A stretch of 41,465 bases of DNA, taken from contig JACSDF010000008.1 in the NCBI GenBank assembly GCA_015660815.1, positions 1-41,465 of the forward strand. Reading direction: 5' to 3'. The translations under genes were made by a program, and so were the position numbers. This document shows, piece by piece, positions 372-35,653 of this stretch (its first letter is position 1; every line of letters starts with the position of its first letter). Under the pieces are notes generated by a model. The model saw only the letters and a program-made list of their open reading frames with translations, was not told the DNA's origin and searched no databases. This DNA comes from Actinomycetota bacterium. Lineage in GTDB: Bacteria > Actinomycetota > Actinomycetes > Nanopelagicales > Nanopelagicaceae.

Positions 372-428
372 CGGGGCTAAAAATAAAAGTAACCCCACGC
401 GACGAACTGTGGGGCTACTTAGAGTGTG

Positions 429-502
429 TACCACTGGCGGAGATTGAACCCGCGACCTACAACATCGTCAGAGTGTCGCTCTATCCACTGAGCTACAGCG
501 GT
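429..502 (-). tRNA. tRNA-like gene, apparent anticodon GAC (Val), imperfect anticodon stem
   Basis: On the minus strand, 502 to 429 folds as a cloverleaf: 7 bp acceptor stem ACCGCTG/CAGTGGT, discriminator A, D-arm GCTC/GAGC with loop AGTGGATA, and T-arm GCGGG-TTCAATC-TCCGC. No CCA is encoded. The anticodon loop is best read as CTGACGA (anticodon GAC, valine), but the anticodon stem only forms with a bulge and a T-T mismatch, and the gene is one nucleotide longer than the standard count. It may therefore be a divergent functional tRNA or a decaying copy. Partial look-alikes of its 5' half occur at about 280-320 and 589-627. Confidence 0.6.
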
Positions 503-15032: not shown

Positions 15033-15862
15033 AATTCGGTGGGTAAATAATGTTTAGCGAGGCCATCTCGCGCAAAGGCTAAAAGCGTCAAACCGAATTC
15101 GGCTGCCAAGTCCACAGCTAACGAAGTTGGTGCACTGACTCCAACGATGGCAGAGACACCAGCGCATACAGATTTCTGTACTAACTCATAGCCGATTCGT
15201 CCTGATACAACCAAAGTCCAATCACTCAATGGAACTTTGCCATCCATAAGCGCCGCGCCAATTACTTTATCAACGGCGTTATGGCGACCAACATCCTCGC
15301 GAACCCAGACGGGCTCCCCCTTCGGATTCACTAAGAGCGCAGCATGCAGACCCCCTGTTTTTTCAAATATGTGTTGACGTCCATTAAGGAGCAGCGCCAT
15401 TGCCGCTAACTCTTGATTGCTATGGCGTGAGGGCAAAACTTTCGTAATTCCTCGCTTATGTAAATCGGAAATACTTGTAGAGCCACAGACACCGCAGGCA
15501 GAGGTAATTGTAAATCGCCGCTCCAAAACTCGAGATGGTTGATGCGAATTTTGAATTACTTCTGCAATCACTACATTGGCGCGCGCTCGTGGGGACAGTG
15601 ATTTATCACCACACACTTTGACGCTTACTAACTCTTCACGCGATGTAAGAAAGCCTTCCCCCCAAAGAAAACCTGCGGCAAGTTCTAGATCATTGCCGGG
15701 TGTACGCATTGTGATTCCCAGTTGGTCTTCGTCTTCGCCACGTTTAAGTCGAATTTCAAGCGGTTCTTCGACCACAACTGAGTCAGAAGTTGGCGTAGCT
15801 GAATCTGTTTTTTGCACCTTTACCTTTGCAATGGCGGAAGGCGCAAGCTCATCACTTGACAT
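15029..15862 (-). CDS. fdhD: Formate dehydrogenase accessory sulfurtransferase FdhD
   Basis: 277 residues. The CGVCG motif (C123, C126) and the preceding FTITSACG identify FdhD, which carries sulfur from the cysteine desulfurase to the molybdenum cofactor and is required for formate dehydrogenase activity. Also typical are [19 protein letters not shown] and the C-terminal [14 protein letters not shown]. It overlaps betA by 11 bp and the UbiA fusion by 4 bp, so it is translated with the choline oxidation genes, while its likely clients are the formate dehydrogenase at 30.7-35.7 kb and perhaps the molybdoenzyme at the left edge. Confidence 0.93.
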
Positions 15863-17579: not shown

Positions 17580-18533
17580 TTATCCAAGCCACCCCGCGAC
17601 TGTGTCTGGGTTAGCATCGATCCACTTTTGAGCCGCTGCTGCTGGCTCCATGCCGCCTTCAATATCGGCAGCTACTGAGTTCTGATCAGCATTTGTCCAT
17701 TTAAAGTTCATTACGATAGTTGCGAAGATTGAACCTGAGTCCATCAACTTCTTACTCATTAACTTTTGTAGTTGAGTCTCTGGGTAATCGGTTAGACCAC
17801 TGGCTTCAGCAGCATCGCTCCAGTCGTTAGCTGGAAACTTAATTCGTGACTGTTCTAAACCAGGAATCTTTATGAAGAGTGTTCCTGGAGTATAGAAGTA
17901 AGCAAGAGCGGGAGTCTTATTTGCTTCTGCTTTAGTCAGAACATCTACAAGTGCTGCCTCTGATCCAGTGGCTATCGCTTTGAAGTTCAACTTATTTGCG
18001 GCAATCATCTTTTCGCCAATAGTCGTATATCCCGGAGGACCTTCATACCAAGCGCCTTTGCCACCTGAGTCGGCAGTCTTAAACATATCTGCATATTTAT
18101 TTAGGTTCGCCGAATCCAAAATATCTGGATACTCAGCTGCCATCCAAGGAGCCACGTACATACCGATCAGGCCTACGTTTCCGTTGTCACCTGCTTCTAA
18201 GACTGCACCACGATCCACCCACTCTTGCCAGCGACCGCCGCCCCAATCTTCAATAATTAAATCGATAGATCCAGCTTCCATTGCATCATATGTAACGCCG
18301 GCCTCTTCAAGGGTGGTCTGCGTAATTGTGCAGCCATTTGCCTTTGCAACTTCAGCTACAACCTGGGCCGATGCTGTATATCCATTCCATGCATGCATTG
18401 CAATTGCCCATGTTCCGCAATCGCTAGCGCTGTCTGCGCTGTCGTTTACGCTCGAGCTACATCCTGCAAGAACCAGAGCTCCTGCAACTACAAGCGATGC
18501 CGCCGCTGAGCGGCGTCCAAGGCTAAATTTCAT
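17580..18533 (-). CDS. opuAC: Glycine betaine/choline ABC transporter substrate-binding lipoprotein
   Basis: 317 residues. Lipoprotein signal: MKFSLGRRSAAASL, hydrophobic stretch, lipobox LVLAGC (C25). The mature part is an OpuAC-type quaternary-amine-binding domain: AMHAWNGYTAS, LIIEDWGGGRWQEW and GPPGYTT contribute tryptophans and a tyrosine of the kind that form the aromatic cage around the trimethylammonium group. Strong ribosome site AGGAGGAG four bases before ATG. It is the last transporter gene, isolated by ~90 bp upstream and by the hairpin downstream, the usual sign that the binding protein is made in excess over permease and ATPase. Confidence 0.92.
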   Translation of the reverse strand: MKFSLGRRSAAASLVVAGALVLAGCSSSVNDSADSASDCGTWAIAMHAWNGYTASAQVVAEVAKANGCTITQTTLEEAGVTYDAMEAGSIDLIIEDWGGGRWQEWVDRGAVLEAGDNGNVGLIGMYVAPWMAAEYPDILDSANLNKYADMFKTADSGGKGAWYEGPPGYTTIGEKMIAANKLNFKAIATGSEAALVDVLTKAEANKTPALAYFYTPGTLFIKIPGLEQSRIKFPANDWSDAAEASGLTDYPETQLQKLMSKKLMDSGSIFATIVMNFKWTNADQNSVAADIEGGMEPAAAAQKWIDANPDTVAGWLG

Positions 18534-18624: not shown

Positions 18625-20553
18625 TTACACTCTGCGCGCACTTGCCTGTGCGATTCGGTCAATCGTCACACCGAGAAGCAAAATTACAAAACCAGCTACG
18701 AGACCCTTACCTTGTAACTCAGGTTTTGAGCCTCCCAAGATAACTAAGTAGCCAAGGCCACCAGAGCCAACGAAGCCACCAATTACAACGACTGCTAAAA
18801 CAAAGATCATGCCCTGATTAGTTGCCAGCAGGATAGATTTCTTAGCCGCTGGTAACTGCACTTTCGTAATTATTTGTCGCACAGTTGAACCCGCCGCAGT
18901 TGCCGCTTCAATCATCGATGCTGGGACCGCTCGAATACCCTCACCGACTATTTTCACAACTACTGGGATTGAATAAACAATTCCAGTTGCAATCGCAGTG
19001 AATCTCGTTGGACCAAAAAGACCCAGCATCGGGATAAGGTAAACGAAGGCCGGCAAAGTTTGGCCAGCATCTAGAAATGGTCGAAGAATTCTTTCTGCGC
19101 TTTCATTTCGGCCGACCAAAATTCCAAGAGCTATCCCGATTGTCATCGTCAATAAAGTTGCAACTATCGTCTGCGTCAAGGTAATCATGGCCTCATGCCA
19201 CAGTCCAGATAAGACGATGAGTGAAAGAAGTACGGTGACAAGAATAGCGACGCGGTTTCCGCCGATAACAAGGGCTAAAAATACAATCGCCGTGAGAGTT
19301 ACATACCATGGAGAAAAAGCTAAGAGCGTCTCCAAAGGATTTAACACCCAGTTAGAGATGAAATCCTTAAAACCAACGGTAAAGATATAGAGATTTGTTG
19401 TAATCCACTTAGTTGCACTATTCGTTACATTTTCTACCTGCGAAGAGATGTTTATAGATGATGGCCATACAGCCAGTGATAAGACCGTGCGTGATGCGAA
19501 AATTGAAATTATTGTTGCTATGCCAGCAAGTCCTAACTTAATTCTACTATTGCGAATTTGAGCTGGTGTAGGTGGAATAAAACCCTCTTGGGCCTTTGCC
19601 GCTGCACTTGTGCTTCTATCTAATAAAATCGCTACAAATACAACTGCGAATCCGGCAACAAAACCTTGGCCGACATTTCGAATAATGAGGGCATCAACTA
19701 CCGGTTTTCCTAAACCAGGAGCTCCGATTAAAGCAGCAATCACAACAAATGAAAGCGCGGCCATCACAGTCTGATTAATACCTAAAACAATCATCTGCTT
19801 AGCCATCGGCAACTGCACTTTCGAAAGAGTTTGCTTTCCAGTTGATCCCATGGAAACCGCAGCTTCAATAGGTGATTGATTCAAATTCCGAATCGCATGT
19901 GAGGTGATACGAATAGAAATCGGGATGCTGTACACCATGGTTGCAATAGTCGCCGAAGCTGTGCCGATTAAGAAGAAAAGGGCAAGGGGTGCTAAATAAA
20001 CCAAAGTCGGAAGAATCTGTGCTAGATCTAAAAATGGAGTCAATATTTTCAGCACGCGATCTGATAAACCAGCCCATATTCCCATTGGAATTCCAATAAG
20101 TAATGACAAAAGCACAGATGCAAATGTCATCGCGAATGTATCCATGGTGAATTGCCACATACCGAGTGCTCCACACGCCAATAAAAGTGAGGTGGCAAGA
20201 AGTGCAGTGCGTAATCGACTTGTGGCATACACAGTAAATGCGACAATTGCCGCGACTCCAAACCATCCAATGAGTGGAATGATTGCGTTGCCGCGCGGCA
20301 CAGAAATAAGCGTACGAATCGCTTCAACAAATCCATTGATTGTGGCACGAATTGGATTAAAGAGATAAATAAAGGCGGCGCTCTTTGTACGGTTGCCACG
20401 AATCGATGCCGCTGCATCGCCGACTGCAGTAGTAAATCCGGTATTTTCCGAGGTTGAAAGCTCTAGCGTATGGTCATCTTGGAATAGTCGAGATAGAAAT
20501 ATCCAGACTAGCGCACCACCAATTAAGAGCTGTGATTTTTTCAAATGCGGCAT
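18625..20553 (-). CDS. Glycine betaine/choline ABC transporter permease, two permease domains in one chain
   Basis: 642 residues, about twice the length of a ProW/OpuAB permease. Two binding-protein-dependent permease domains are arranged in tandem: the first around residues 130-315 (SVLLSLLIGIPMGIWAGLSD, then PIEAAVSMGSTGKQTLSKVQLP), the second around 450-635 (TLLTMTIGIALGILVGRNES, then SMIEAAAAGST-like EAATAAGSTVRQIITKVQLP). Each EAA-type loop contacts an ATPase subunit. The start codon directly follows the stop of the ATPase gene (TAA-ATG). Membrane-located; imports the quaternary amine delivered by the lipoprotein. Confidence 0.9.
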   Translation of the reverse strand: MPHLKKSQLLIGGALVWIFLSRLFQDDHTLELSTSENTGFTTAVGDAAASIRGNRTKSAAFIYLFNPIRATINGFVEAIRTLISVPRGNAIIPLIGWFGVAAIVAFTVYATSRLRTALLATSLLLACGALGMWQFTMDTFAMTFASVLLSLLIGIPMGIWAGLSDRVLKILTPFLDLAQILPTLVYLAPLALFFLIGTASATIATMVYSIPISIRITSHAIRNLNQSPIEAAVSMGSTGKQTLSKVQLPMAKQMIVLGINQTVMAALSFVVIAALIGAPGLGKPVVDALIIRNVGQGFVAGFAVVFVAILLDRSTSAAAKAQEGFIPPTPAQIRNSRIKLGLAGIATIISIFASRTVLSLAVWPSSINISSQVENVTNSATKWITTNLYIFTVGFKDFISNWVLNPLETLLAFSPWYVTLTAIVFLALVIGGNRVAILVTVLLSLIVLSGLWHEAMITLTQTIVATLLTMTIGIALGILVGRNESAERILRPFLDAGQTLPAFVYLIPMLGLFGPTRFTAIATGIVYSIPVVVKIVGEGIRAVPASMIEAATAAGSTVRQIITKVQLPAAKKSILLATNQGMIFVLAVVVIGGFVGSGGLGYLVILGGSKPELQGKGLVAGFVILLLGVTIDRIAQASARRV

Positions 20554-21582
20554 TTATGCAACACCGGAAATTAACCGCAAAACATCCTCGCTAGAGACAA
20601 CACCAAGCGCCTTACCATTATCGTTTACCCGAATAGGTTTGTGCGTCTGTAAAATTACTTGTGCCGCATCTCGTATGATCATTGATGAAGACAACTCTGG
20701 ACCATCTGTATCCTCGCCGGGTGCGGCAGGACGTGCCAAATACTTAAGGGAGAGAACATGCGACTTTGGAATGTCGCGAACAAAGTTAGCAACGTAATCA
20801 TCGATTGGATTAGCAACTAACTCTTCAGGTGTCCCAGTCTGAACAACTGCACCATCGCGCATAATGGCAATGCGATCACCTACCTTTACCGCCTCCGATA
20901 AATCGTGGGTGATAAATACCATCGTCTTGCCGAGCTCGTGGTGCAGTCGAATTACCTCTTGCTGCATGTCACGTCGAATGAGTGGGTCAAGGGCGCTAAA
21001 TGGTTCGTCCAAAAAGAGAACTTGAGGATCAACGGCTAGAGCCCGAGCTAAACCAACTCGCTGTTGCATTCCACCTGAAAGTTGTTCGGGGTAGGCATTT
21101 GAATAACCATGAAGACCGACGAGTTCGATAACTTCATTGGCACGTGCATGACGTTCGGTCTTTTTTACTCCGTTTATTTCAAGTGAGTATGCGATGTTGT
21201 CTATAACTTTTCGGTGAGGCAATAAACCAAAGTGTTGAAAGACCATTGAAAATCGAGTCTTGCGAAGTTCGCGCAATCGCGCTGCATCGACGAGTAAAAC
21301 ATCCTCGCCCTCAAAAGTAAGAGAGCCTGCCGTGGGTTCAATTAAACGCGTCATGCATCGGACAAGGGTTGATTTTCCAGAGCCCGATAAACCCATGACA
21401 ACAAAGACTTCGCCGGGTGCGACATCAAATGAAACATCTCGCACAGCGATTGTGTTTCCAGTTTGAGCACGAAGTTCTGAACGCGTTAAATCGGCGAGCG
21501 GACTGCCTATGACTTTTTCGGCATTTGATCCAAAGACTTTCCAGAGGTTTTTAACTGAAATCATTGGTGCTTCACTACTCAC
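20554..21582 (-). CDS. proV: Glycine betaine/proline-type ABC transporter ATPase with CBS-like tail
   Basis: 342 residues. ATPase domain with Walker [10 protein letters not shown] (64-72), signature [15 protein letters not shown], Walker [15 protein letters not shown] and switch histidine in [10 protein letters not shown]. The N-terminal VFGSNAEKV and the C-terminal CBS-like region (about 270-342, ending [17 protein letters not shown]) are typical of ProV/OpuAA, where the CBS part senses ionic strength; the tail here is short. Start is GTG 21582, eight bases after AAAGGA. It lies between betB and the permease in one leftward unit. Confidence 0.92.
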
Positions 21583-21601: not shown

Positions 21602-23074
21602 CTAATCTCTGAACCATCCAGATCGACTAGGAGCATTGTTGGTCCAAATGTGTTTGATTTCAAGGTACTCACCCAAGCCATGCTCGCCTAATTCGCGGCC
21701 AATTCCCGATTGCTTGTATCCACCCCACTCAGCAGCTGGGCGATATGGTCCAAAATCATTGACCCAGATGGTGCCATGACGCAGTGCGCTGGCCACACGT
21801 GCCGCTTTTTCAGAGTCACTACTCCACACGCCTCCAGATAAACCAAAGTTCGTGTCATTTCCAATTGCTATTGCTTCGGCCTCGGTATCAAAGACTTCTA
21901 CCGTCATGACCGGCCCAAAGGACTCTTCTTGCACGCAATACATTGAAGATTTGGCATTATCTAGAACTGTTGGCAGGTAGTACCAGCCATTAGCATGTTC
22001 TGGCAGTTCGCTGCGTTTTCCACCAACTAATAATGTGGCACCCTCGGCAACACCTTTTTCAACATACTCGCTGACATTTCTCAGATGTGCTGCGCTGATG
22101 AGTGGTCCAGTCTCGGCCATTTCATCACTTGGTCCCCCGAGTCGAATCTTTGCTGCGCGCCGAACAATCTCACTAACCACGCGATCATGAATCGAACGCT
22201 CAACGATTAATCGAGTTCCGGCTGAACAGACTTGTCCGGAGTGCAAGAAGGCTGCAGTGACTGCGTTATCGATTGCCGCATCTAGATCAGCATCGGCAAA
22301 GATGATGTGTGGATTTTTGCCACCAAGTTCGAGAGCTAATTTTTTTATTGTTTGCGCAGCTGCCCGCATGATTGTTTGGCCAGTGGTCAATCCACCAGTG
22401 AAAGAGACTAAATCGACGCGTGGATCATTTATTAACAATGTGCCAACCACAGAGCCAGGACCTAAAATTAAATTTGCAACGCCTTTCGGTGTACCGGCTT
22501 CTTCAATAATTTTCATTAAAGCAATTGCGCTTTGTGGTGTTAACTCAGAGGGCTTAACAATAAAGGAGCATCCAGCAACTAATGCAGGAGCAACTTTCCA
22601 AGCAATCTGCAACAGCGGATAATTCCAAGGTCCAATAAGGGAAGCAACACCGAGCGGTTCGTGAACAATTTGACTATGAACATGCGGTAGACCAACATCA
22701 ACCTTTCGGCCATGCTCCTTTGCGCCAAGAGCCGCGAAATGTCTAAATGTTGATATGACATCGGCCAGATCGTATTGAGCCTCGGTAAATCGCTTACCAG
22801 TGTCATCACTTTCTTTGCGGGCGATGAGATCGGCATCGCGTTCTAATAAATCGGCAATTTTTGAAACTAAATCACTACGCTCTTTAAAACTCCATGAGGT
22901 GAAAATGCCAGAGTCAAAAGATCTACGAGCTGCGGCAATTGCATCATCCACATCGGCCTCTGTCGCTTGCGAAACAGTGGCGACAACGCTTTGATCATGC
23001 GGGCTATGGACATCGTGGAATCCGTTATCAGATGCCGCTCTCCAGACACCGTCGATAAAAAGCGTTGCGACCAT
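21602..23074 (-). CDS. betB: Betaine aldehyde dehydrogenase-like NAD(P)-dependent aldehyde dehydrogenase
   Basis: 490 residues, the usual BetB length. Conserved aldehyde dehydrogenase residues: N151 in GPWNYPLLQ, E249 in LALELGGKNP and the nucleophile C283 in SGQVCSAG. It would oxidise betaine aldehyde to glycine betaine with NAD(P)+. The family is broad and substrate specificity cannot be proved from sequence; neighbouring betA, the quaternary-amine transporter and mtgB make betaine aldehyde the best guess. Start ATG 23074 is 7 bp after the mtgB stop, with no strong ribosome site, so translational coupling is likely. Confidence 0.85.
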   Translation of the reverse strand: MVATLFIDGVWRAASDNGFHDVHSPHDQSVVATVSQATEADVDDAIAAARRSFDSGIFTSWSFKERSDLVSKIADLLERDADLIARKESDDTGKRFTEAQYDLADVISTFRHFAALGAKEHGRKVDVGLPHVHSQIVHEPLGVASLIGPWNYPLLQIAWKVAPALVAGCSFIVKPSELTPQSAIALMKIIEEAGTPKGVANLILGPGSVVGTLLINDPRVDLVSFTGGLTTGQTIMRAAAQTIKKLALELGGKNPHIIFADADLDAAIDNAVTAAFLHSGQVCSAGTRLIVERSIHDRVVSEIVRRAAKIRLGGPSDEMAETGPLISAAHLRNVSEYVEKGVAEGATLLVGGKRSELPEHANGWYYLPTVLDNAKSSMYCVQEESFGPVMTVEVFDTEAEAIAIGNDTNFGLSGGVWSSDSEKAARVASALRHGTIWVNDFGPYRPAAEWGGYKQSGIGRELGEHGLGEYLEIKHIWTNNAPSRSGWFRD

Positions 23075-23081
23075 AGTGGAT

Positions 23082-24518
23082 TTAATCTAGTTGGCTTTTG
23101 CGCATTGCAACAAACTCATCGAGCTCTTGTCGCATACGTGGATCCATTTCAGGAGCCACGAAATCCTCTAACTTTTTCTTGTAAATCTCGCCAGCGCGGG
23201 TCTTGGAATCTTTTGCACCTAATCGAGTCCAGCGCTCGAAATTATCGCTGTTAGTTAAAAATGGTCGATAGAAACAGTCTCGGAAGCGCTCCATAGTGTG
23301 CGCTGCCCCGAGGAAATGACCCCCATGTCCAACTTCTAGATGGGCATCAAAGGCCAGGGATTCAATATTAAATTCCAGCGGGGTGAACTCGGTCATGAGC
23401 GATTGGAGGATTTCAATATCGAGAACAAACTTTTCATAACAAGAGACCAAGCCGCCCTCTAACCAGCCTGCAGTATGCATTACCCAGTTAGTACCGGATA
23501 AGAATGTTGGCATCATCGTCATCATGGATTGATATGCAGATTGTGCATCGACCGTCTGTGAGGAGTTCAAACCACCACCGCCACGGAATGGAAGATTAAA
23601 GCTACGTGCAATTTGACCAGTACAGAGCAGTCCAATTCCAGATTCAGGAGTACCAAACTGTGGTGAACCCGATTGCATATCGATGTTAGATAGAAAAGAG
23701 CCAAAAACAATTGGGCATCCCGGATTAAGTGTCTGCGCGAGTGCAATTCCAGTTAGCGCTTCAGCTATCTGTTGTGCCAGAGTCGCAGGAATAGTTACAG
23801 GGCTCATTGCGCCCATCAGTAGAAATGGTGTTACTACAACTGGTTGCCCCGCTAAAACATACTCACGAAGTGAGTCCAGCATGCGATCGTCCCAGCGCAA
23901 TGGCGAATTGCAATTAACGAGAGATATCAGAGCCGGAGTTTCAACAATTGCTTCGCGACCTCCATGAATTATCTCTGCCATTTTGATGACATCTTTTGCA
24001 TTCTGAGCCGTTACAACATTGCCCATAAAAAACTTATCGGTTAGCGTGGCCGCGGCATAGGCCATATCTAAGTGGCGTGAATCTAGAGATAAGTCATTCG
24101 GTTCGCAGACGACACCGCCGACACTATCTAGCGCATCAAATGATTGGGCTAGCTTGCAAAAATTTTCGTAGTCGTTAAACGTCGCATCGCGGCGAATATC
24201 ACCTTCACGTACAAATGGTGGACCGTAAACGCCACCAAAGACCATCGAATTACCACCAATGTGAACATTATTTTTAGGATTGCGAGCGCGCAGGTTGAAC
24301 TCACTCGGCGCTAACGCGCACTGCTTCAAAATCCAGTCGGGATCGAATTTAACGTTCTCGCCTTCAACGCTTTGGCCAGCTTCACGGAGAAGATCAACGG
24401 CCCACGGCGACATGAACTCAATGCCAATTTCAGAGACGATTCGGCGCCATCCAGCCGTTAAAGTCGCCATAGATTCTTGGCTTAAGATTTCATATCGAGG
24501 CATTCGATTTTCGAACAT
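23082..24518 (-). CDS. mtgB: MttB-family methyltransferase without pyrrolysine, probable glycine betaine:corrinoid methyltransferase
   Basis: 478 residues of the trimethylamine methyltransferase (MttB) superfamily: VYGPPFVREGD, GGVVCEPNDL, ETPALISLVNCNSPLRWD, SGSPQFGTPESG and RGGGGLNSSQTVDAQSAYQS. The frame has no internal amber codon, so it is a non-pyrrolysine member like the glycine betaine methyltransferase MtgB of Desulfitobacterium rather than a Pyl-containing trimethylamine enzyme. It would move one methyl from glycine betaine to Co(I) of the corrinoid protein, leaving dimethylglycine. Good ribosome site AAGGAG eight bases before ATG. First gene of the leftward arm, divergent from iclR. 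Other quaternary amines (carnitine, proline betaine) remain possible substrates. Confidence 0.85.
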   Translation of the reverse strand: MFENRMPRYEILSQESMATLTAGWRRIVSEIGIEFMSPWAVDLLREAGQSVEGENVKFDPDWILKQCALAPSEFNLRARNPKNNVHIGGNSMVFGGVYGPPFVREGDIRRDATFNDYENFCKLAQSFDALDSVGGVVCEPNDLSLDSRHLDMAYAAATLTDKFFMGNVVTAQNAKDVIKMAEIIHGGREAIVETPALISLVNCNSPLRWDDRMLDSLREYVLAGQPVVVTPFLLMGAMSPVTIPATLAQQIAEALTGIALAQTLNPGCPIVFGSFLSNIDMQSGSPQFGTPESGIGLLCTGQIARSFNLPFRGGGGLNSSQTVDAQSAYQSMMTMMPTFLSGTNWVMHTAGWLEGGLVSCYEKFVLDIEILQSLMTEFTPLEFNIESLAFDAHLEVGHGGHFLGAAHTMERFRDCFYRPFLTNSDNFERWTRLGAKDSKTRAGEIYKKKLEDFVAPEMDPRMRQELDEFVAMRKSQLD

Positions 24519-24575: not shown

Positions 24576-24602
24576 TGGAACGGTGGTTCCATATTATGGA
24601 AC
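24576..24602. promoter_or_regulatory. Paired palindromic operator, probably bound by the IclR regulator
   Basis: TGGAAC-ggtg-GTTCCA (24576-24591) and GTTCCATATTATGGAAC (24586-24602) overlap by sharing the central GTTCCA. The three half-sites put the two TGGAAC copies exactly 21 bp apart, two helical turns, as expected for a tetrameric IclR-family protein. A possible -10 (TATTAT, 24592-24597) for iclR lies inside the second palindrome, suggesting autorepression and joint control of mtgB on the other strand. Confidence 0.7.
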
Positions 24603-24629: not shown

Positions 24630-25391
24630 ATGAGTGAGTTAGTGAATGGGACGCAGGCCATTGATCGCGCTAGTGCCTTGCTCATTCACATTTTGGAATC
24701 CTCGACTCCTCCACTTTTATCTCAGCTAGCGCGTACATATGAAATTCCAAAGAGCACGACGTCACGGATGCTCAGTGCGCTAGAGCGCCAAGGGCTTATT
24801 CGTCGAGATCAACAAGGAGCCTTCATTGCCGGCGATGTTCTCACTCAATTTGCCCGCTCACACAATCACGACTCGGTTTTGGTCGCTCGCGTGCACTCGG
24901 TTTTAGAGAAATTAGCGCTAATTACGGGAGAAACATCAAACTTAGCCGTCGCAAGTAATGGCGAGATGAAGTTAATCGATCAAGTTGATGGCCATTATTT
25001 ATTAGGTGCCACTAACTGGGTGGGAAGAAGTATTCCTTTTCACGCCTCAGCTCTCGGGAAAGTTCTTTTGGCATATGGTGCGGCCACGATTCCACTTGGC
25101 AAGCTTGAAAAACTTACGACAAAGACAATTATTTCACGTCCAAAACTATTGACCGAACTCGAAAACGTTCGCAAAAAGGGATATGCAATTATAATAGATG
25201 AACTAGAAGAGGGATTGGTTGCAGTAGCTGCTCCTATTCGTGAAGATGATGGACGAGTTGTTGGGGCAGTTTCGATCTCTGGTCCATCTCCGCGATTAAC
25301 AATGAGAGATTTAACCAAGATAGGCGAAGTTATTATCCAAGAGATCCACTCACTCCAGGCAAACCATGAAGGAAAGATAGGTGCAGCATGA
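24630..25391 (+). CDS. IclR-family transcriptional regulator
   Basis: 253 residues. N-terminal winged helix (about 12-70: ALLIHILES, LLSQLARTYEIPKSTTSRML, SALERQGLIRRD) and C-terminal IclR effector domain (TSNLAVASNGEMKLIDQVDG, PFHASALGKVLLAY, GYAIIIDELEEGLVAVAAPI, GAVSISGPSPRL). Placed between the two divergent arms of the island, with a double palindrome 28 bp before its start, it is the obvious local regulator; the ligand may be glycine betaine, choline or a demethylation product (inference). Ribosome site GAAAGGTGGGG. Its stop overlaps the corrinoid protein start by 4 bp (ATGA), so regulator and corrinoid protein are coupled. Confidence 0.92.
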   Translation: MSELVNGTQAIDRASALLIHILESSTPPLLSQLARTYEIPKSTTSRMLSALERQGLIRRDQQGAFIAGDVLTQFARSHNHDSVLVARVHSVLEKLALITGETSNLAVASNGEMKLIDQVDGHYLLGATNWVGRSIPFHASALGKVLLAYGAATIPLGKLEKLTTKTIISRPKLLTELENVRKKGYAIIIDELEEGLVAVAAPIREDDGRVVGAVSISGPSPRLTMRDLTKIGEVIIQEIHSLQANHEGKIGAA

Positions 25392-26053
25392 CTCATGACG
25401 ACATCATCAAAGCGCTCTTTGACGAGACTTTAGTTGGCAACGCTCCTGCAGTTTTAGAGTTAACTAAAACGGGAATCGCCGATGGTATGACTCCGAGCAC
25501 AATTCTCTTTGATGCACTCATTCCAGCGCTGGAAGAAGTGGGTGCTCGTTTTGAGCGCGGAGATTTTTTTGTTCCTGAGATGCTCGTTTCAGGTAAGGCG
25601 ATGTCGGGAGCTCTCGCATTTCTGCGACCATTATTAGCTGAAACAGGCGCAGAAACCGTTGGCACGTATTTAATGGGAACGGTTAAGGGCGATGTTCACG
25701 ATATCGGTAAGAACTTAGTAAATATCATGCTGGAAGGTGCTGGCTTTAATGTGATTGACCTTGGGGTCCAGGTCGCACCTGAAAAATTTATCGCTGGAAT
25801 TCTTGAGCATAAGCCAGATATCGTTGGAATGTCTGCATTCTTAACAACAACTATGCCGATGTTTAAAGTTAATATTCATGAAATTACAAAGGCTGGGCTT
25901 CGCGATCAGGTCATCATTATGGTTGGTGGAGCTCCCGTTACGCAGGAGTATGCCGATGTCGTTGGCGCCGATGGTTTTGCCGCCGATGCTTCAACTGCAG
26001 TACGTATTGCAAAGGATTTAATCGCTAAAAAGCGTGCTGCGGTTTCTGCATAA
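25388..26053 (+). CDS. mtgC: Corrinoid (B12-binding) methyl carrier protein
   Basis: 221 residues, standard for MtbC/MttC/MtgC proteins. Residues 1-88 form the helical cap domain (FDALIPALEEVGARFERGDFF, where EEVG.RFE.G.FF is conserved). Residues 90-215 are the B12-binding Rossmann domain with GTVKGDVHDIGKN: D102-x-H104-x-x-G107 supplies the lower-axial histidine. GLRDQVIIMVGGAP and GADGFAADA complete the corrinoid pocket. It accepts a methyl group from the MtgB-like enzyme and hands it to the THF methyltransferase two genes on. Cytoplasmic. Confidence 0.93.
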   Translation: MTHDDIIKALFDETLVGNAPAVLELTKTGIADGMTPSTILFDALIPALEEVGARFERGDFFVPEMLVSGKAMSGALAFLRPLLAETGAETVGTYLMGTVKGDVHDIGKNLVNIMLEGAGFNVIDLGVQVAPEKFIAGILEHKPDIVGMSAFLTTTMPMFKVNIHEITKAGLRDQVIIMVGGAPVTQEYADVVGADGFAADASTAVRIAKDLIAKKRAAVSA

Positions 26054-26061
26054 GAGAAAAA

Positions 26062-26442
26062 ATGTTGAAAAAACTTCTTCCCTTCGTTGAACATGCTCTG
26101 AAAGCCCCTGTTTGGGATTGCCGCATGTGTGGACAGTGTGTACTTCACTCAACTGGCATGACCTGTCCAATGACCTGTCCCAAAACGTTACGCAATGGAC
26201 CATGTGGCGGAGTGCGCGAAAATGGTAACTGCGAAGTGATTCCAGAGATGCAGTGCATTTGGGTGAAAGCCTACGATCGCACCATCTCACTTCCATTACC
26301 AAAGGTATGGAAAGAGCATTACAACGAACTTCGCCCACCGGTAGATATGCAGTTACAAGGAACTTCTTCGTGGATAAATTTAGTAACGAAGCGCGATCAA
26401 CAAGTTCCAGATGGATGGTCGGTACAAGGTAGTGAGCACTAA
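26062..26442 (+). CDS. MetV-like zinc-binding partner of methylenetetrahydrofolate reductase
   Basis: 126 residues with eight cysteines, C20, C23, C26, C35, C39, C48, C57 and C65 (DCRMCGQCVL, TCPMTCPKTL, GPCGGVRENGNCEV). This is the 'methylene-THF reductase C-terminal domain' family (MetV), known in acetogens to pair with MetF. The cysteine set suggests Zn or Fe-S binding. Its stop and the metF start share one base (TAATG), so the two are made together. It probably links MetF to an electron carrier other than NADH; the carrier is not identifiable here. Confidence 0.85.
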   Translation: MLKKLLPFVEHALKAPVWDCRMCGQCVLHSTGMTCPMTCPKTLRNGPCGGVRENGNCEVIPEMQCIWVKAYDRTISLPLPKVWKEHYNELRPPVDMQLQGTSSWINLVTKRDQQVPDGWSVQGSEH

Positions 26443-27338: not shown

Positions 27339-27362
27339 ACACCGAAACGATAGGAGCACACG

Positions 27363-28244: not shown

Positions 28245-28276
28245 GAATTAATAAAAAAGAGCTAGATCCATCACTT

Positions 28277-30151
28277 GTGCCCCATCATGACGGTACCGGT
28301 CGGGTCAAGCTCGCCTTTAGATCACTTGAAAAAGATAACTCCGTTGCATCAGAGAAAACTATTACTGTCCCAACAGGTGTCAGCGCCTTTGACGCCGCTT
28401 CTTGGAATGGGATTGCAATTGACTCGACATGCGGTGGATATGGAACCTGCAAGAAATGCCGCATCAAAATTACCGATGGTGATGTTGAGCCCTCAAAATT
28501 AGATTTTCGGGCATTCACTGAAAGTGAAATTAAACAAGGATGGCGATTGGCCTGCCTTGTACGCACAAGTACCGATATTTCTATCGATGTACCACCCTTA
28601 ACAACTCGCCCAAAAGCTGCAACCGTTGGTGTCGGGCGCCAAGTTATTTTACGTCCCGCAGTTCAGAAACGTTACGTTGAATTAGAAGAGCCAACGCTGC
28701 ACGATCAGCGAACCGACATAGTGCGCTTATTTGATGCCATTGATGATATCGAGGGCACAGCATCCCTTGCAGCAATGCGCAATATTCCTACAGTTCTAAG
28801 AGCATCTAATTTTAAAGTAACGGCAGTCTTTGTAGATCAAGCATTCATCGATATTGAAGCTGGGGATACAACTGCCTTTCGTTATGGAATCGCATACGAC
28901 TTAGGAACCACAACTGTCGTGGCAACACTCTTAGATTTAAATACCGGCACACCTTTGGCGGTTAAATCGATTCTCAATAAACAGCAACCATTTGGCGCCG
29001 ATGTAATTACGCGAATTAGTGCCACGATGTTAGATCCAGCGGCCCTTGAAAAACTATCCTCATTGGCGCAAGAGACGCTTAATCAACTCACCCAAGAAGT
29101 CTGCGAAGAGGCCAGTGTCAACCCACTGCATGTCTATGAAATTGCTATCGCTGGAAATGCAACGATGAACCAACTGCTCTTAGGAATTGATCCTGAACCA
29201 CTAGGTGTTGCGCCATTTATAATGGCGGCAGCTGATTTTCCAGATGTTGAGGCAAAAGACATTGGGATTGCTATTCACCCGCGTGCAAAAGCGATTATTT
29301 TGCCATCGTTAGGTGCATACGTTGGTGGAGATATTATCGCCGGCGCACTTGCATCTGGAATGGATCGCGACAAGCGCTTGCGCTTATTTATCGATGTCGG
29401 CACCAACTGTGAAATCGTCCTTGGCGATGGTGAAAAGATTTTGGCGACCGCAGCACCGGCTGGCCCGGCATTTGAAGCGGCAAGTATTAAATGTGGTGTC
29501 CGCGCCGCATCCGGTGCGATAGAAACCATCAAAATTACCGATGGACAACTCGTTATTGGCACCATTGATGATGCCCCTGCTATTGGAATCTGCGGCTCAG
29601 GTTTAGTAGATGCTTGTGCCAGCCTTGTTGGAATTGGTTTACTCGATCACTCGGGACGCTTTGTCTCCGATGAGATTGCTAAAGAGTTAGCGCCAACGTT
29701 GTCAGATCGATTACTTATGCGCGAAGGTGAGCGCGTTTTTGTCTTAACGTGGAGTAAAGAGGTCGGGGATTTATCTGATTGCGTGTTTTTAACTCAACGC
29801 GATGTGCGCGAACTTCAATTTGCTAAAGCGGCGATTGCAACTGGGTGGGCATTACTTCTAGAAGAGTTTGGCGTCGCAGAGTCTGAGATTCAACAAGTGC
29901 TTCTTGCTGGATCTTTTGGCTCTTATCTCTCCCCGGCATCTGCCGTTAAAATAGGTCTTGTTCCTAAACTCTCTGTGATGCGCATTTTATCGGCCGGCAA
30001 TGTTGCCGGAGAAGGTGCAAAAATGGTCTTGCTATCTGCGCAAGAGCGACATGGAGCAGCGGCGCTATTGGAGGAGATTTCATATGTCGAATTATCAGAT
30101 CGCGCAGATTTCAACGATAAATTTGTGGATCGCTTAGCTTTCCCAGCATGA
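28277..30151 (+). CDS. Corrinoid activation protein, ferredoxin plus ASKHA domains (RACo/DUF4445 type)
   Basis: 624 residues from GTG 28277. The N-terminal [2Fe-2S] domain has C52, C58, C61 (TCGGYGTCKKC) and C93; the C-terminal DUF4445/ASKHA part starts with YDLGTTTVVATLLD (ATP-binding) and contains GNATMNQLLLG, DVGTNCEIVLGD and AGSFGSYLSP. RACo and RamA-type proteins reduce accidentally oxidised Co(II) corrinoids back to Co(I) using ATP and low-potential electrons. The frame remains open upstream to an ATT at 28247 and reads KKELDPSL before the GTG; no ribosome site fixes the start. It overlaps the DUF1638 start by 4 bp (ATGA). Confidence 0.9.
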   Translation: MPHHDGTGRVKLAFRSLEKDNSVASEKTITVPTGVSAFDAASWNGIAIDSTCGGYGTCKKCRIKITDGDVEPSKLDFRAFTESEIKQGWRLACLVRTSTDISIDVPPLTTRPKAATVGVGRQVILRPAVQKRYVELEEPTLHDQRTDIVRLFDAIDDIEGTASLAAMRNIPTVLRASNFKVTAVFVDQAFIDIEAGDTTAFRYGIAYDLGTTTVVATLLDLNTGTPLAVKSILNKQQPFGADVITRISATMLDPAALEKLSSLAQETLNQLTQEVCEEASVNPLHVYEIAIAGNATMNQLLLGIDPEPLGVAPFIMAAADFPDVEAKDIGIAIHPRAKAIILPSLGAYVGGDIIAGALASGMDRDKRLRLFIDVGTNCEIVLGDGEKILATAAPAGPAFEAASIKCGVRAASGAIETIKITDGQLVIGTIDDAPAIGICGSGLVDACASLVGIGLLDHSGRFVSDEIAKELAPTLSDRLLMREGERVFVLTWSKEVGDLSDCVFLTQRDVRELQFAKAAIATGWALLLEEFGVAESEIQQVLLAGSFGSYLSPASAVKIGLVPKLSVMRILSAGNVAGEGAKMVLLSAQERHGAAALLEEISYVELSDRADFNDKFVDRLAFPA

Positions 30152-30732
30152 GTATTGGCATTGTGGCCTGCGGTGCATTGGCCACACATATTGGTGACAT
30201 TGCAGCTGATGCCGACCTTGATTTAACTATTTATCCATTACCACCGCTGTTACATAACCACCCTGAAAAAATTGCAGGCGAAGTTGATGCACTTTTATCC
30301 GAGATTAAAGAAAAGCACAGTAAGTGCGCCGTGGCTTACGCCGATTGCGGCACGTATGGAGCCCTCGACACTGTAATCGCGCGCCATGGCGTGCAGAGGT
30401 TGGGTGGTAATCATTGTTATGACATCTTTGCGGGGACTTCTGAAATTGAGAGATTAATGGCCGAAGATGCTGGAACTTATTTTCTCACCGACTTTCTCGT
30501 AAAATCCTTTCATCGAAGTGTGATTGTCGAGTTGGGCTTAGATAAATATCCTCACCTTCGCGATGATTATTTTCGCAACTACTCACGCGTGGTCTGGTTA
30601 GCACAAAGACCAACTGTAGAGTTAGAGCAGGCCGCGACTGATGCTGCCAAGGAGATTGGTTTACCTCTTGAAAAGCAAATCGTTGGGTACAAGGGTTTGC
30701 GAAAACAACTGGAGGTTTTAATTAGCCATTGA
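30148..30732 (+). CDS. DUF1638 family protein
   Basis: 194 residues, function unknown. DUF1638 proteins often accompany MttB-type methyltransferases and RACo. Visible conserved-looking features are C8 (IVACGA), C60, ADCGTYGALD (C67) and GGNHCYDIFAG (H89, C90), which could bind a metal or corrinoid. No signal peptide or membrane segment. It is translated from an ATG overlapping the RACo stop and its last 15 bp overlap the tail of the convergent fdsA gene. Its steady association suggests a service role in corrinoid methyl transfer (inference). Confidence 0.85.
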   Translation: MSIGIVACGALATHIGDIAADADLDLTIYPLPPLLHNHPEKIAGEVDALLSEIKEKHSKCAVAYADCGTYGALDTVIARHGVQRLGGNHCYDIFAGTSEIERLMAEDAGTYFLTDFLVKSFHRSVIVELGLDKYPHLRDDYFRNYSRVVWLAQRPTVELEQAATDAAKEIGLPLEKQIVGYKGLRKQLEVLISH

Positions 30733-33711
30733 TGTGATCTCAATTGCACGCACAATAAGCGGTGAGAGCAATGAGTGATCCACATCATTTCGTAGCCGAT
30801 CAATCATTGCTGGAGTCCAAAACTGAACTAAGTGATGAGCAATTTGTATCTCAGGTGCACTTTGGACGGGAACATTTGCCGCAATTTGATTAGCCATACG
30901 AATAATAGAATCTAATTGTGCGTCCCCACTGATGTGAGTTTCAATCATTTCCCCCGGTCCTTGAAGGCTGGGAGAAATCTCGACTGCAGTAACTTTGTAT
31001 TCTGGGCAGTTAGTAGCCCAATCAGAGTAATCGGTGGTTATTACATTAGCTCCACTTTCTGGGAAGTGAAAAGTTGTATATACAACACCTGCAGGAACCT
31101 CATCGGTGATTCGTGCCTTCATGATTGTTTCACCAACTCGGCTCGATAATTTGACCCACGAACCATCGCTGACTCCACGAAGTTGAGCATCGGATTCATG
31201 TAAATCTAAAATATCTTCACTATGCCAAATATTGTTAGCAGTTCTTCGAGTTTGTGCACCAACGTTGTACTGACTTAGGACTCGTCCTGTTGTAAGTAAT
31301 AGCGGAAACCTACGCGTAGCTTTTTCATCTGTGGGTACATATGGAGTTTTCATGAATCGACCTTCACCGCGCACGAATTTATCAATGTGCATCGTTGGTG
31401 TTCCCTGCGGATTGGATTCATTACATGGCCACTGGATGCTCCCGAGCTCATCTAAGCGCTCAAAGGAGACTCCAGCAAACGTTGGCGTCGTAGCTGCAAT
31501 TTCATCCATAATTTCTGCGCCATTTATGTATGACATTGGATAACCCATGGCGGTTGCTAAGTCACACGTAACTTCAAACTCGCTTTTACCAGTCTTAGAT
31601 TTCATGACTGGTCGAACTCGGTTTATTCTGCGCTCGGCATTTGTAAAAGTTCCATCTTTTTCTAGAAAAGAAGTACCTGGCAAAAAGACATGTGCAAATT
31701 TCGATGTTTCATTAAGAAATAGATCTTGAACTATGACCATATCCATAGCTCGCAAAGCTGCATGCACATGTGAAGTATTGGGATCGGATTGTGCGATGTC
31801 TTCCCCCTGAACATAGAGTCCACGATATTGACCAGCCAGAGCCGCATCAAACATATTTGGAATTCGCATTCCTGGTGTGGATTGAAGTTCAACGCTCCAA
31901 GCATCGTTAAATATCTTGCGCGTATCGGGATTTGATATATGTCGGTATCCAGGTAATTCATGTGGAAATGAGCCCATATCGCATGAGCCTTGAACATTGT
32001 TCTGACCTCGGAGTGGATTTACTCCAACACCTTTGCGCCCAATATTTCCAGTTGCCATTGCAAGATTTGCAATACCCATGACCATTGTCGAACCTTGACT
32101 ATGTTCGGTCACACCAAGGCCGTAATAAATAGATCCATTTGTCGCACTCGCAAATAAGTGCGCCGCGGCTCTTATTTGCGCGGCTGGTACGTGCGAGGAA
32201 AGCTCTAAAGCTTCAGGTGAATTTTCAGACAGAGAGATAAATTCTTCCCACTCTTTAAATGATTCGGCATCACAGCGCTCTTCCACAAATTGGCGTTTAA
32301 TCAATCCGTCGGTGGCAATAACATGTGCCAAAGCATTTATTACCGCGACATTTGTACCTGGCATTAATTGCAAGTGATGTGAGGCGGTAACACCAGGAGT
32401 TCGAACAAGTGGAATAACTCGTGGATCTACGACGATTAACTTGGCACCCTTTCGAATAGCGCTCTTCATGCGTGAGGCAAAAACAGGGTGGGCCGACGTT
32501 GGGTTAGCGCCAATGAGCATAATGACATCGCTATGTTCTACCGACTCGAAATCCTGAGTTCCGGCCGAAGTTCCGAAAGTCTGTCCCAAACCATAACCAG
32601 TTGGCGAATGGCACACACGTGCACAGGTGTCTATATTGTTATTGCCAAATGCTGCGCGAACCATCTTTTGGACGACAAAAACCTCTTCATTTGTACAGCG
32701 GGAGGATGAAATTCCACCTATTGCATTTACTCCACTCTCATTTTGAATCCGCTTTAAGCCATCGGAGGCAAATGAAATCGCTTCACCCCAAGAAACCTCT
32801 TTCCAGGGTTCGGTAATCGCGCTTCGAATCATGGGTTTTGTAATTCGATCTGTATGCGTTGCATAACCATAAGCAAAACGGCCCTTTACGCATGAGTGTC
32901 CCTCATTAGCCCCGCCAGCTTTAAGTGGAACCATACGTACGACTTCATCTCCACGCATTTCGGCTTTAAAGCTACAACCAACACCACAGTAGGCACATGT
33001 TGTAATGACCGATGACGTTGGTGAACCAATCGTCAATAAAGTCTTTTCAGTTAAAGCTCCAGTTGGACAGGCTTGCACACACGCACCACATGAGACGCAT
33101 TCACTGTCAATAAAGGATGTTCCAGAGGATGAAACTCGCGCTTCAAATCCACGATTTTCAATCGTTAATGCAAATGTTCCTTGCACCTCATCGCAAGCGC
33201 GGACACAGCGGTTGCAGACGATGCACTCTGTAGAATCAAAAGTAAAGTATGGATTACTCTCATCTTTTTCTAATCCTAAATGTGTATCAGTGCCGGCGTA
33301 TCGACTTGTTGTAACACCGACTTTTCTAGCTACTCCGTGAACTTCACACTCATCACCAGTGGCACAATGTTCGGGATGATCTGAAAGGTACAACTCCATT
33401 ACACCTTTTCGAATCCGATCAAGCCTTTCAGATTGAGTTGAAACTTTCATTCCCTCGGCAACTGGAGTTGTACACGATGAAGGTGTGCCGTTGCGACCAT
33501 CAACTTCAATCACACACAGTCGACACGAACCAAATGCCTTTAAGCGGTCGGTGGAACAGAGTTTAGGAATATCGATCCCAGCCTCTAGCGCCGCACGCAT
33601 AATCGATGTAGCGGCGGGCACTGTGATTAATCTGCCATCAATTTCAAGGTTGACTTGATCAGTGTGTTGACTAGCAGGTGTGCCAAAATCAGGCTCAAAA
33701 ATCATTGTCAT
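30718..33711 (-). CDS. fdsA: NAD-linked formate dehydrogenase alpha subunit with C-terminal FdsD-like extension
   Basis: 997 residues. In order: [2Fe-2S] domain (C52, C63, C66, C80), His/Cys cluster HCATGDEC (~115-122), two ferredoxin clusters (ECIVCNRCVRAC, ECVSCGACVQACP), the catalytic-domain cluster CAYCGVGC...SCVKG, and the bis-MGD domain with the molybdenum-ligating cysteine C367 followed by H368 in RVCHSPTGYG (cysteine, not selenocysteine). After the MGD-binding C-terminal domain, the last ~65 residues (IIRMANQIAANV, AHHLVQFWTPAM) look like the small FdsD subunit fused on. Oxidises formate to CO2 and passes electrons to FdsB/FdsG. Overlaps fdsB by 4 bp. Confidence 0.92.
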   Translation of the reverse strand: MTMIFEPDFGTPASQHTDQVNLEIDGRLITVPAATSIMRAALEAGIDIPKLCSTDRLKAFGSCRLCVIEVDGRNGTPSSCTTPVAEGMKVSTQSERLDRIRKGVMELYLSDHPEHCATGDECEVHGVARKVGVTTSRYAGTDTHLGLEKDESNPYFTFDSTECIVCNRCVRACDEVQGTFALTIENRGFEARVSSSGTSFIDSECVSCGACVQACPTGALTEKTLLTIGSPTSSVITTCAYCGVGCSFKAEMRGDEVVRMVPLKAGGANEGHSCVKGRFAYGYATHTDRITKPMIRSAITEPWKEVSWGEAISFASDGLKRIQNESGVNAIGGISSSRCTNEEVFVVQKMVRAAFGNNNIDTCARVCHSPTGYGLGQTFGTSAGTQDFESVEHSDVIMLIGANPTSAHPVFASRMKSAIRKGAKLIVVDPRVIPLVRTPGVTASHHLQLMPGTNVAVINALAHVIATDGLIKRQFVEERCDAESFKEWEEFISLSENSPEALELSSHVPAAQIRAAAHLFASATNGSIYYGLGVTEHSQGSTMVMGIANLAMATGNIGRKGVGVNPLRGQNNVQGSCDMGSFPHELPGYRHISNPDTRKIFNDAWSVELQSTPGMRIPNMFDAALAGQYRGLYVQGEDIAQSDPNTSHVHAALRAMDMVIVQDLFLNETSKFAHVFLPGTSFLEKDGTFTNAERRINRVRPVMKSKTGKSEFEVTCDLATAMGYPMSYINGAEIMDEIAATTPTFAGVSFERLDELGSIQWPCNESNPQGTPTMHIDKFVRGEGRFMKTPYVPTDEKATRRFPLLLTTGRVLSQYNVGAQTRRTANNIWHSEDILDLHESDAQLRGVSDGSWVKLSSRVGETIMKARITDEVPAGVVYTTFHFPESGANVITTDYSDWATNCPEYKVTAVEISPSLQGPGEMIETHISGDAQLDSIIRMANQIAANVPVQSAPEIQIAHHLVQFWTPAMIDRLRNDVDHSLLSPLIVRAIEITSMAN

Positions 33712-35231: not shown

Positions 35232-35653
35232 TGTCGGGCTGCTTCGATTTTTTCAAGCGTGGCACGACCAATAATCTTTCCATTCACCATTGCGGCAGGC
35301 CCAAGGGCACAGTTTCCAAAGCAGTAGGCCACTCGACTTTCTTCAGGAAATTTCGCTTTCACGTCGCGCTCTAATTCCCGTGCCCCCACAGATTGGCAGG
35401 CTTCAGCAACGCAAATTGAGATCTCATGCGGCGGAGGTGGCGTAGTTCGCAAATCATGGTAAAAAGTTAGTACTCCATGTACATCGGCCCTGGATTTATT
35501 AAAGGTTAGTGCGATGAGTTCTACACATGCCTTATCGACATAACCAAACTCTCTCTGCATTAACTGCAGGGCTATGAGCACAGCACCTCTTTCTTCACGC
35601 AGGGTCGCAAGAAGAGCTACTGCTCGCTCTTGTGACCACGGTGAATAATTCAT
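35228..35653 (-). CDS. fdsG: Formate dehydrogenase gamma subunit, NuoE-like
   Basis: 141 residues, thioredoxin-like [2Fe-2S] protein with ligands C81, C86 (ICVAEACQS) and C111, C115 (YCFGNCALGP). N-terminal helices (LLATLREERGAVLIALQLMQ split by family helix, GYVDKACVELIA) match NuoE/FdsG. It works with FdsB in the diaphorase module that reduces NAD+. Its start shares one base with the fhs stop (TAATG), joining formyl-THF cleavage to formate oxidation in one message. Confidence 0.92.
   Translation of the reverse strand: MNYSPWSQERAVALLATLREERGAVLIALQLMQREFGYVDKACVELIALTFNKSRADVHGVLTFYHDLRTTPPPPHEISICVAEACQSVGARELERDVKAKFPEESRVAYCFGNCALGPAAMVNGKIIGRATLEKIEAARQ

What the first reader, a model, noticed from the sequence alone, without database searches (positions are those of the whole stretch)
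23082..24518. Non-pyrrolysine MttB homologue inside a bet operon
The gene is an intact 478-codon frame with no amber codon, and is directly upstream of betB and a betaine transporter. Corrinoid betaine methyltransferases were characterised in strict anaerobes; here the setting (choline dehydrogenase, ETF, NAD-formate dehydrogenase) suggests a respiring organism that must keep Co(I) reduced.
Basis: partly seen in the sequence, partly recalled or inferred. Interest (0 to 1): 0.75.

Follow-up and report, generated by a model that had tools for sequence, protein, structure and literature searches.

The report
Aerobic betaine demethylation locus in Planktophila
A common, oxygen-breathing lake bacterium carries a compact vitamin-B12-dependent gene cluster that very probably strips a methyl group from glycine betaine, and in its genus this cluster is found only in genomes that lack the usual B12-dependent methionine synthase, so it probably makes the cell's methionine too.

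Summary
Window 23082-24518, on the minus strand, is an intact 478-codon MttB-family gene without amber, 7 bp upstream of a betaine-aldehyde dehydrogenase and a betaine-type transporter. The genome belongs to freshwater Ca. Planktophila or a near relative and has a haem-copper oxidase, so it respires.

The gene is one half of a divergent locus. Facing it are genes for an IclR regulator, an MtgC-type corrinoid protein, MetV/MetF, an MtgD-type methyl-folate transferase, a RACo-type reductive activase and DUF1638. A conserved operator-like site lies between the halves. Choline dehydrogenase and a dimethylglycine-oxidase homologue bracket the missing step, glycine betaine to dimethylglycine. The predicted fold matches the glycine betaine methyltransferase MtgB (TM 0.97). 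Four proposed substrate residues are conserved; one aromatic is not.

Aerobic corrinoid betaine demethylation is already published (Ruegeria, PNAS 2025), so the kind is known. What I did not find described is this Planktophila locus and its distribution. Among 61 genomes of the genus, 22 have this MttB, 37 have methionine synthase MetH, none has both, and MttB carriers have a stand-alone homocysteine methyltransferase. The locus is therefore probably also the methionine synthase. The substrate is inferred, not assayed.

The parts
23082..24518 (-). MttB-family methyltransferase, MtgB-like (478 aa): proposed glycine betaine:corrinoid methyltransferase
   Evidence: PF06253 605 bits; AF2 model pLDDT 92.9, TM 0.97 to MtgB 9yce; only MttB in the genome
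24576..24602 (+). Conserved operator-like site TGGAACN4GTTCCATATNNTGRAAC in the divergent promoter region, probably the IclR operator
   Evidence: 0 expected by chance in the window; exact or near-exact in the mttB-iclR intergenic regions of the genus and in two loci of another family
21602..23074 (-). betB-like aldehyde dehydrogenase
   Evidence: best NCBIfam TIGR01804 BADH 557 bits, under its cut-off of 669
20554..21582 (-). proV-type betaine/choline ABC ATPase
   Evidence: TIGR01186 346 bits, over cut-off
18625..20553 (-). fused double permease of the choline/betaine ABC type
   Evidence: TIGR03416 342 bits, two stretches
17580..18533 (-). OpuAC-type substrate-binding lipoprotein
   Evidence: PF04069 101 bits; nearest solved structure 4xz6, 71 bits
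15852..17507 (-). betA choline dehydrogenase
   Evidence: TIGR01810 827 bits, cut-off 732
15029..15862 (-). FdhD, formate dehydrogenase accessory protein
   Evidence: PF02634 198 bits
24630..25391 (+). IclR-family regulator (BhcR-like)
   Evidence: PF01614 and PF09339; NF045644 142 bits, under cut-off
25388..26053 (+). MtgC-type corrinoid protein
   Evidence: PF02310 and PF02607; best NCBIfam MtgC NF047996 199 bits, under its cut-off of 370
26062..26442 (+). MetV-like protein (DUF5981, MTHFR C-terminal)
   Evidence: PF12225 90 bits
26442..27338 (+). MetF, methylene-THF reductase, proposed to run as methyl-THF oxidase
   Evidence: PF02219 76 bits
27363..28244 (+). MtgD/MtgA-type methyl-THF:corrinoid methyltransferase
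   Evidence: NF005719 308 bits, cut-off 259; AcsE and MetH folate-domain structures
28277..30151 (+). RACo/AcsV-like reductive activase of corrinoid proteins with N-terminal [2Fe-2S] domain
   Evidence: PF14574, PF17651, PF17650, PF00111; RACo structure 3zyy 338 bits
30148..30732 (+). DUF1638 protein, proposed helper of cobalamin reactivation
   Evidence: PF07796 79 bits; invariant Cys8, Cys67, Cys90, His36
30718..35653 (-). NAD-dependent formate dehydrogenase (alpha, NuoF-like, NuoE-like subunits)
   Evidence: TIGR01591 867 bits; TIGR01959; NF004638
35653..37317 (-). formate--THF ligase
   Evidence: NF010030 896 bits, cut-off 652
37321..39035 (-). ETF alpha and beta subunits
39035..41464 (-). 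FAD/GcvT fusion, dimethylglycine oxidase/dehydrogenase-like, cut by the contig end
   Evidence: dimethylglycine oxidase 1pj5 477 bits over 806 residues

Best explanation
The gene encodes an MtgB-type glycine betaine:corrinoid methyltransferase in an aerobic freshwater actinobacterium of Ca. Planktophila or its close kin. Proposed course: choline or betaine is imported; BetA and BetB make glycine betaine; MttB moves one methyl to Co(I) of MtgC, leaving dimethylglycine; MtgD passes the methyl to tetrahydrofolate; MetF/MetV, FolD, formate-THF ligase and formate dehydrogenase oxidise it to CO2; the FAD/GcvT fusion with ETF demethylates dimethylglycine further. The RACo-type activase, perhaps with DUF1638, returns accidentally oxidised Co(II) to Co(I). 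Because the genome lacks MetH and MetE, MtgC and MtgD with a stand-alone homocysteine methyltransferase (G000:C40:7152-8036) probably also form the methionine synthase. Shown: gene content, fold, conservation, distribution. Inferred: substrate, direction of flux, dual role.
For: Fold TM 0.97 and rmsd 1.4 to MtgB 9yce. Proposed betaine-contact residues Y98, N202, R312 and H348 are invariant in the aerobic clade and match DhMtgB Y94, N199, R309 and H345 of PMC6855144. BetA (827 bits, over cut-off) and a dimethylglycine-oxidase homologue (477 bits) bracket the step. Corrinoid protein, methyl-THF transferase and activase lie in the divergent operon. Synteny holds in the seven same-genus loci compared, and mttB faces iclR-mtgC in most class-level loci. 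Shared operator-like site. One MttB per genome within the genus. MttB 22, MetH 37, both 0 of 61; stand-alone PF02574 in 21 of 22 carriers; MetE in 1 of 61. All 37 genomes searched have COX1. The same dual use is shown by mtgC and mtgD mutants in Ruegeria (PMC12478193).
Against: No activity is known for any member of this clade. DhMtgB falls outside it. The aromatic F353 of DhMtgB is G356 here, with W352 at the neighbouring I349 position. BetB and MtgC miss their curated cut-offs. The nearest solved binding protein, 4xz6, is to my knowledge the TMAO-binding TmoX. MetH exclusivity rests on two supported switches, and one MAG outside the sample (G093) has both MttB and MetH.
Confidence: 0.78

Rival explanations
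1. The enzyme is an MttB-superfamily demethylase of another quaternary amine (proline betaine, carnitine, gamma-butyrobetaine, choline or phosphocholine) that happens to sit with bet genes.
For: The clade has no assayed member; its active site differs from DhMtgB at two neighbouring positions; DhMtgB branches outside; the binding protein resembles 4xz6 more than betaine-specific proteins.
Against: betA and betB produce glycine betaine and the dimethylglycine-oxidase homologue uses its demethylation product; betA or the transporter recurs beside MttB in other families of the class; all four proposed betaine contacts are kept.
Confidence: 0.17
2. The locus serves betaine demethylation only; methionine comes from outside or from another route, and the absence of MetH is unrelated streamlining.
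For: Only two supported switches between the states; the mttB/iclR region carries an operator-like site, so mtgC may be off without betaine; G093 has both MttB and MetH.
Against: 0 of 61 genomes have both, and a stand-alone homocysteine methyltransferase, 34-37% identical to the MetH domain and with its cysteine motifs kept, appears in 21 of 22 carriers. In Ruegeria mtgC and mtgD mutants are methionine auxotrophs.
Confidence: 0.3
3. The stand-alone PF02574 protein is a true betaine-homocysteine methyltransferase that uses betaine directly, so MttB is not needed for methionine.
For: Best NCBIfam name is betaine--homocysteine S-methyltransferase PRK07534, 272 bits.
Against: Under that model's cut-off of 338; closer to MetH domains (163 bits) than to BHMT structures (64 bits); PMC12478193 reports that this bacterial type lacks the betaine-binding residues of BHMT.
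Confidence: 0.1
4. It is a pyrrolysine-type trimethylamine methyltransferase or a decayed copy of one.
For: Same superfamily and barrel fold as Pyl MttB (TM 0.91).
Against: No amber codon; TIGR02369 246 against 525; Leu at the Pyl position in all Actinomycetota members; intact in most relatives.
Confidence: 0.01

Closest known systems
MtgBCD(E) glycine betaine demethylation/split methionine synthase of Ruegeria pomeroyi and relatives (PMC12478193)
   Same: MttB-family protein, MtgC, MtgD, RamA-type activase, DUF1638, MetF paralogue, stand-alone MtgE; MetH usually absent; aerobic
   Different: Here a single MttB (Ruegeria has two induced ones), all but mtgE in one divergent locus with an IclR operator-like site, MetV (DUF5981) beside MetF, about 44% identity to proteobacterial MttB; in Actinomycetota of fresh water
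MtgB (DSY3156) of Desulfitobacterium hafniense, PDB 2qne/9yce
   Same: Fold (TM 0.97), about 40% identity, four proposed betaine contacts
   Different: F353 to G356 and I349 to W352; strict anaerobe; separate branch of the tree
S. meliloti MttB-family protein, PDB 4yyc
   Same: 42-43% identity, same W352/G356 signature; sits in the proteobacterial aerobic clade
   Different: Deposited as trimethylamine methyltransferase with an unknown ligand; function not assayed to my knowledge
RACo/AcsV reductive activase of acetogens (PDB 3zyy)
   Same: All domains incl. N-terminal ferredoxin domain, 338 bits
   Different: Under the AcsV cut-off (430 against 800); here paired with DUF1638 and an MtgC, not with the corrinoid iron-sulfur protein

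Membership tests
MttB superfamily (PF06253/COG5598) | Full-length MTTB domain and barrel fold | tested here: met
   605 bits over positions 25-499; Foldseek to 9yce, 2qne, 4yyc, 7xcl
Pyrrolysine MttB (TIGR02369) | In-frame amber/Pyl and equivalog score | tested here: not met
   No amber; 246 bits against 525; Leu317 at the Pyl column
MtgB, glycine betaine:corrinoid methyltransferase | Methylates cob(I)alamin or MtgC with glycine betaine | not testable with these tools
   Needs purified protein
MtgB, glycine betaine:corrinoid methyltransferase | Proposed betaine contacts Y94, N199, R309, H345 (docking, PMC6855144) | tested here: met
   Y98, N202, R312, H348, invariant in 51 Actinomycetota rows
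MtgB, glycine betaine:corrinoid methyltransferase | Aromatic F/Y353 for cation-pi contact | tested here: not met
   G356 here; Trp at 352 where DhMtgB has Ile
MtgB, glycine betaine:corrinoid methyltransferase | Same clade as an assayed MtgB, apart from enzymes for other substrates | tested here: inconclusive
   DhMtgB is the next branch outside; MtpB, MtcB, MtyB, MthB not available
Aerobic MtgBCD(E) system (PMC12478193) | MtgC, MtgD, activase, DUF1638 and MetF encoded with MttB | tested here: met
   Window 25388-30732
Aerobic MtgBCD(E) system (PMC12478193) | Stand-alone MtgE and no MetH or MetE | tested here: met
   G000: PF02574 at C40, no PF02965, no PF01717
Aerobic MtgBCD(E) system (PMC12478193) | Loss of mtgC abolishes betaine growth and methionine prototrophy | not testable with these tools
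   Genetics needed
NCBIfam MtgC (NF047996, NF047995) | Curated score cut-off | tested here: not met
   199 against 370 and 157 against 310; PMC12478193 also reports that aerobic MtgC is distinct
Betaine-aldehyde dehydrogenase TIGR01804 (BetB) | Curated score cut-off | tested here: not met
   557 against 669, though the best-scoring family

The most novel reading that the evidence does not exclude
Within one genus of abundant lake bacteria, the canonical methionine synthase MetH and a betaine-demethylating corrinoid system are alternative, mutually exclusive states that have been switched at least twice, so that in MttB carriers choline/betaine catabolism and methionine synthesis share one corrinoid protein and one cobalamin supply.
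Probability: 0.6. Interest if true: 0.65.

Novelty: new member of a known kind. Interest (0 to 1): 0.5.

Why it matters
Nanopelagicaceae (acI) are among the most abundant bacteria of lakes, and their complete genomes have been described as lacking methylotrophy enzymes (PMC5301498). If the reading is right, a subset respires the methyl groups of choline and betaine through a system long tied to anaerobes, and relies on imported cobalamin for both that and methionine. With one MttB, one MtgC and one locus per genome, they are a simpler test case than Ruegeria, which has two induced MttB proteins. Genus members in the MetH state are natural controls.

Tried and rejected
Pyrrolysine MttB was rejected: no amber and a score far under the cut-off. 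A cobalamin riboswitch in the window was not found; Rfam gives only a tRNA. The second B12-binding gene in G000 (C2:47677) is a MerR/CarH-like regulator, not a MetH fragment (reading of the translation). The DUF1638 model (pLDDT 94) gave no significant Foldseek match (best E 0.0019, TM 0.24); VIA-align gave Z up to 8.7 to Rossmann-like binding proteins and Asp/Glu-racemase-like folds, within the range of a common arrangement, so no function is claimed. Proven MtpB, MtcB, MtyB and MthB sequences were not in PDB or the loci fetched, so the phylogeny against other substrates could not be completed. The COX1 DNA tree with outgroup misplaced the outgroup; I rely on the rpoB trees and on the in-genus part. 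A Fisher test of MttB against MetH gives 1e-14 but ignores kinship; only two independent pairs are supported, so that p-value should not be used as evidence of selection.

Full report
WHAT IS THERE. The frame at 23082-24518 is on the minus strand and encodes 478 aa without an amber codon. It is a full-length MTTB protein (PF06253, 605 bits) that fails the pyrrolysine equivalog (246 against 525). The stop is 7 bp before a BADH-like betB; proV, a fused double permease, an OpuAC-type binding protein, betA and fdhD follow on the same strand. After it, on the minus strand, come an NAD-type formate dehydrogenase, formate-THF ligase, ETF and, cut by the contig end, an FAD/GcvT fusion whose best solved relative is dimethylglycine oxidase (477 bits over 806 residues).

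WHOSE GENOME. The window is contig C10 of a 1.59-Mb assembly, 98% complete. Its closest named relative is a 'Candidatus Planktophila sp.' MAG with MttB 98% identical (L062), in NCBI's Ca. Nanopelagicaceae. Genus membership is inferred from this and from genome size; the assemblies themselves are unnamed. Every one of 37 genomes searched, own and relatives, has a haem-copper oxidase.

THE PROTEIN. The AlphaFold2 model (pLDDT 92.9) matches 9yce, 'Active site of MtgB, a glycine betaine methyltransferase', at TM 0.97 and rmsd 1.4, then S. meliloti 4yyc and, at TM 0.91, Pyl MttB. PMC6855144 proposed from docking that Y94, N199, R309 and H345 of D. hafniense MtgB contact betaine. These are Y98, N202, R312 and H348 here and are invariant in all 51 Actinomycetota rows and 62 proteobacterial rows; distant paralogues mostly lack the set. 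The same paper's cation-pi residue F353 is Gly356 here, and the neighbouring I349 is Trp352, in nearly the whole aerobic clade. That swap may be a compensating aromatic; this is inference.

PHYLOGENY. In a 148-row FastTree and a 43-row IQ-TREE, the query lies in an Actinomycetota clade, next to a Chloroflexota pair (97/91), then with a proteobacterial plus Chloroflexota clade that holds 4yyc. D. hafniense MtgB branches outside (100/99), Pyl MttB far outside. No member of the query's clade has been assayed to my knowledge, and the proven enzymes for other quaternary amines could not be obtained.

CONTEXT AS EVIDENCE. BetA (over its curated cut-off) makes the precursor of betaine and the dimethylglycine-oxidase homologue takes the product of its demethylation; the step between has no other candidate in the window. 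The arrangement mttB facing iclR-mtgC, with betB, proV, proW, opuAC and betA downstream, is kept in all seven same-genus loci compared over about 20 kb (L049 has a partial betB match). In 29 MttB loci drawn mostly from other families of the class, iclR and mtgC face mttB wherever that flank is held, and betA, the transporter or formate-THF ligase is often the other neighbour. About 11% of 395 Actinomycetes genomes have an MttB. A 27-bp site, TGGAACN4GTTCCATATNNTGRAAC, lies between the two operons at 24576-24602; none is expected by chance, and it recurs in 46 of 233 fetched loci, in the mttB-iclR gap of nearly all those of the family and in L192 and L201 of another family (several loci overlap or repeat the same genome). 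It is probably the IclR operator; binding was not tested.

KEEPING COBALT REDUCED. Corrinoid methyltransferases lose activity when Co(I) is oxidised to Co(II). The operon encodes a protein with all RACo domains (N-terminal [2Fe-2S], linker, middle, ASKHA C-terminal; RACo structure 3zyy, 338 bits). PMC12478193 names RamA and DUF1638 as the predicted reactivation pair in aerobes. DUF1638 here keeps Cys8, Cys67, Cys90 and His36 across 22 sequences, which would suit metal or thiol chemistry; its predicted fold has no significant match. The electron donor is unknown; KorAB (9380-12242) could supply reduced ferredoxin, but that is a guess.

METHIONINE. In R. pomeroyi, mtgC and mtgD mutants lose both betaine growth and methionine prototrophy (PMC12478193). 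Here, among 61 genomes of the genus, MttB is in 22, the MetH activation domain PF02965 in 37, none has both, and two genomes only 52-59% complete have neither. A stand-alone PF02574 protein of about 300 aa is in 21 of the 22 MttB carriers and in one MetH genome, G013. MetE is in 1 of 61. In the own genome that protein (C40:7152-8036) is 34-37% identical to the MetH domain of relatives, keeps the cysteine motifs, and resembles MetH (163 bits) more than BHMT (64 bits). So the corrinoid cluster is probably the only methionine synthase as well. Limits: rpoB and COX1 trees force at least two switches, no more, so the count of genomes overstates the evidence. One related MAG, G093 (1.9 Mb, possible contamination), has both, and soil Actinomycetota with related clusters keep MetH. 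An IclR-type switch on mtgC would also need enough basal expression for methionine.

WHAT IS KNOWN. Corrinoid glycine betaine demethylation in aerobes, its link to methionine and the usual absence of MetH are published for marine Proteobacteria (PMC12478193), which also assigned 5% of marine mtgC reads to Actinomycetota. acI genomes were reported to lack cobalamin synthesis; of four strains only IMCC19121 (acI-A7) had formate dehydrogenase, molybdenum-cofactor synthesis and a glycine betaine/proline transporter, and methylotrophy was considered unlikely (PMC5301498). That strain's gene set looks like this locus, but I did not examine its genome. The papers I found did not describe this locus in Planktophila; the library holds only open-licence papers.

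VERDICT. The betaine reading is likely (0.78) but not assayed. The kind is known; the Planktophila locus, its single-copy simplicity, the shared operator-like site and the exclusivity with MetH are what this adds.

Noticed in passing
window 18625-20553 (-): The betaine-type transporter has two permease domains fused in one 642-aa protein, where homologues are usually separate or single-domain.
   Followed up: no
window 13554-15032 (-): One 492-aa frame seems to fuse a UbiA-like prenyltransferase half with an esterase/PHB-depolymerase-like half (reading of the translation; not scanned against families).
   Followed up: no
window 428-502 (-): ARAGORN reports a tRNA with a four-base anticodon (gacg) and no assigned residue, while Rfam scores the same place as an ordinary tRNA (49 bits).
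   Followed up: no
window 30148-30732 (+): DUF1638 keeps three cysteines and a histidine across 22 sequences from several phyla; predicted with high confidence, but without a significant match to solved structures.
   Followed up: partly
L070 / G091 contig C57:3447-21931: A Chloroflexota genome with ten MttB-family genes, seven of them within about 18 kb, a possible substrate-diversified array like that of Eubacterium limosum.
   Followed up: no
L176-L204: MttB facing iclR-mtgC occurs in several other Actinomycetes families, some with 8-9 Mb genomes, so the cluster is older than the freshwater lineage or has moved between families.
   Followed up: partly
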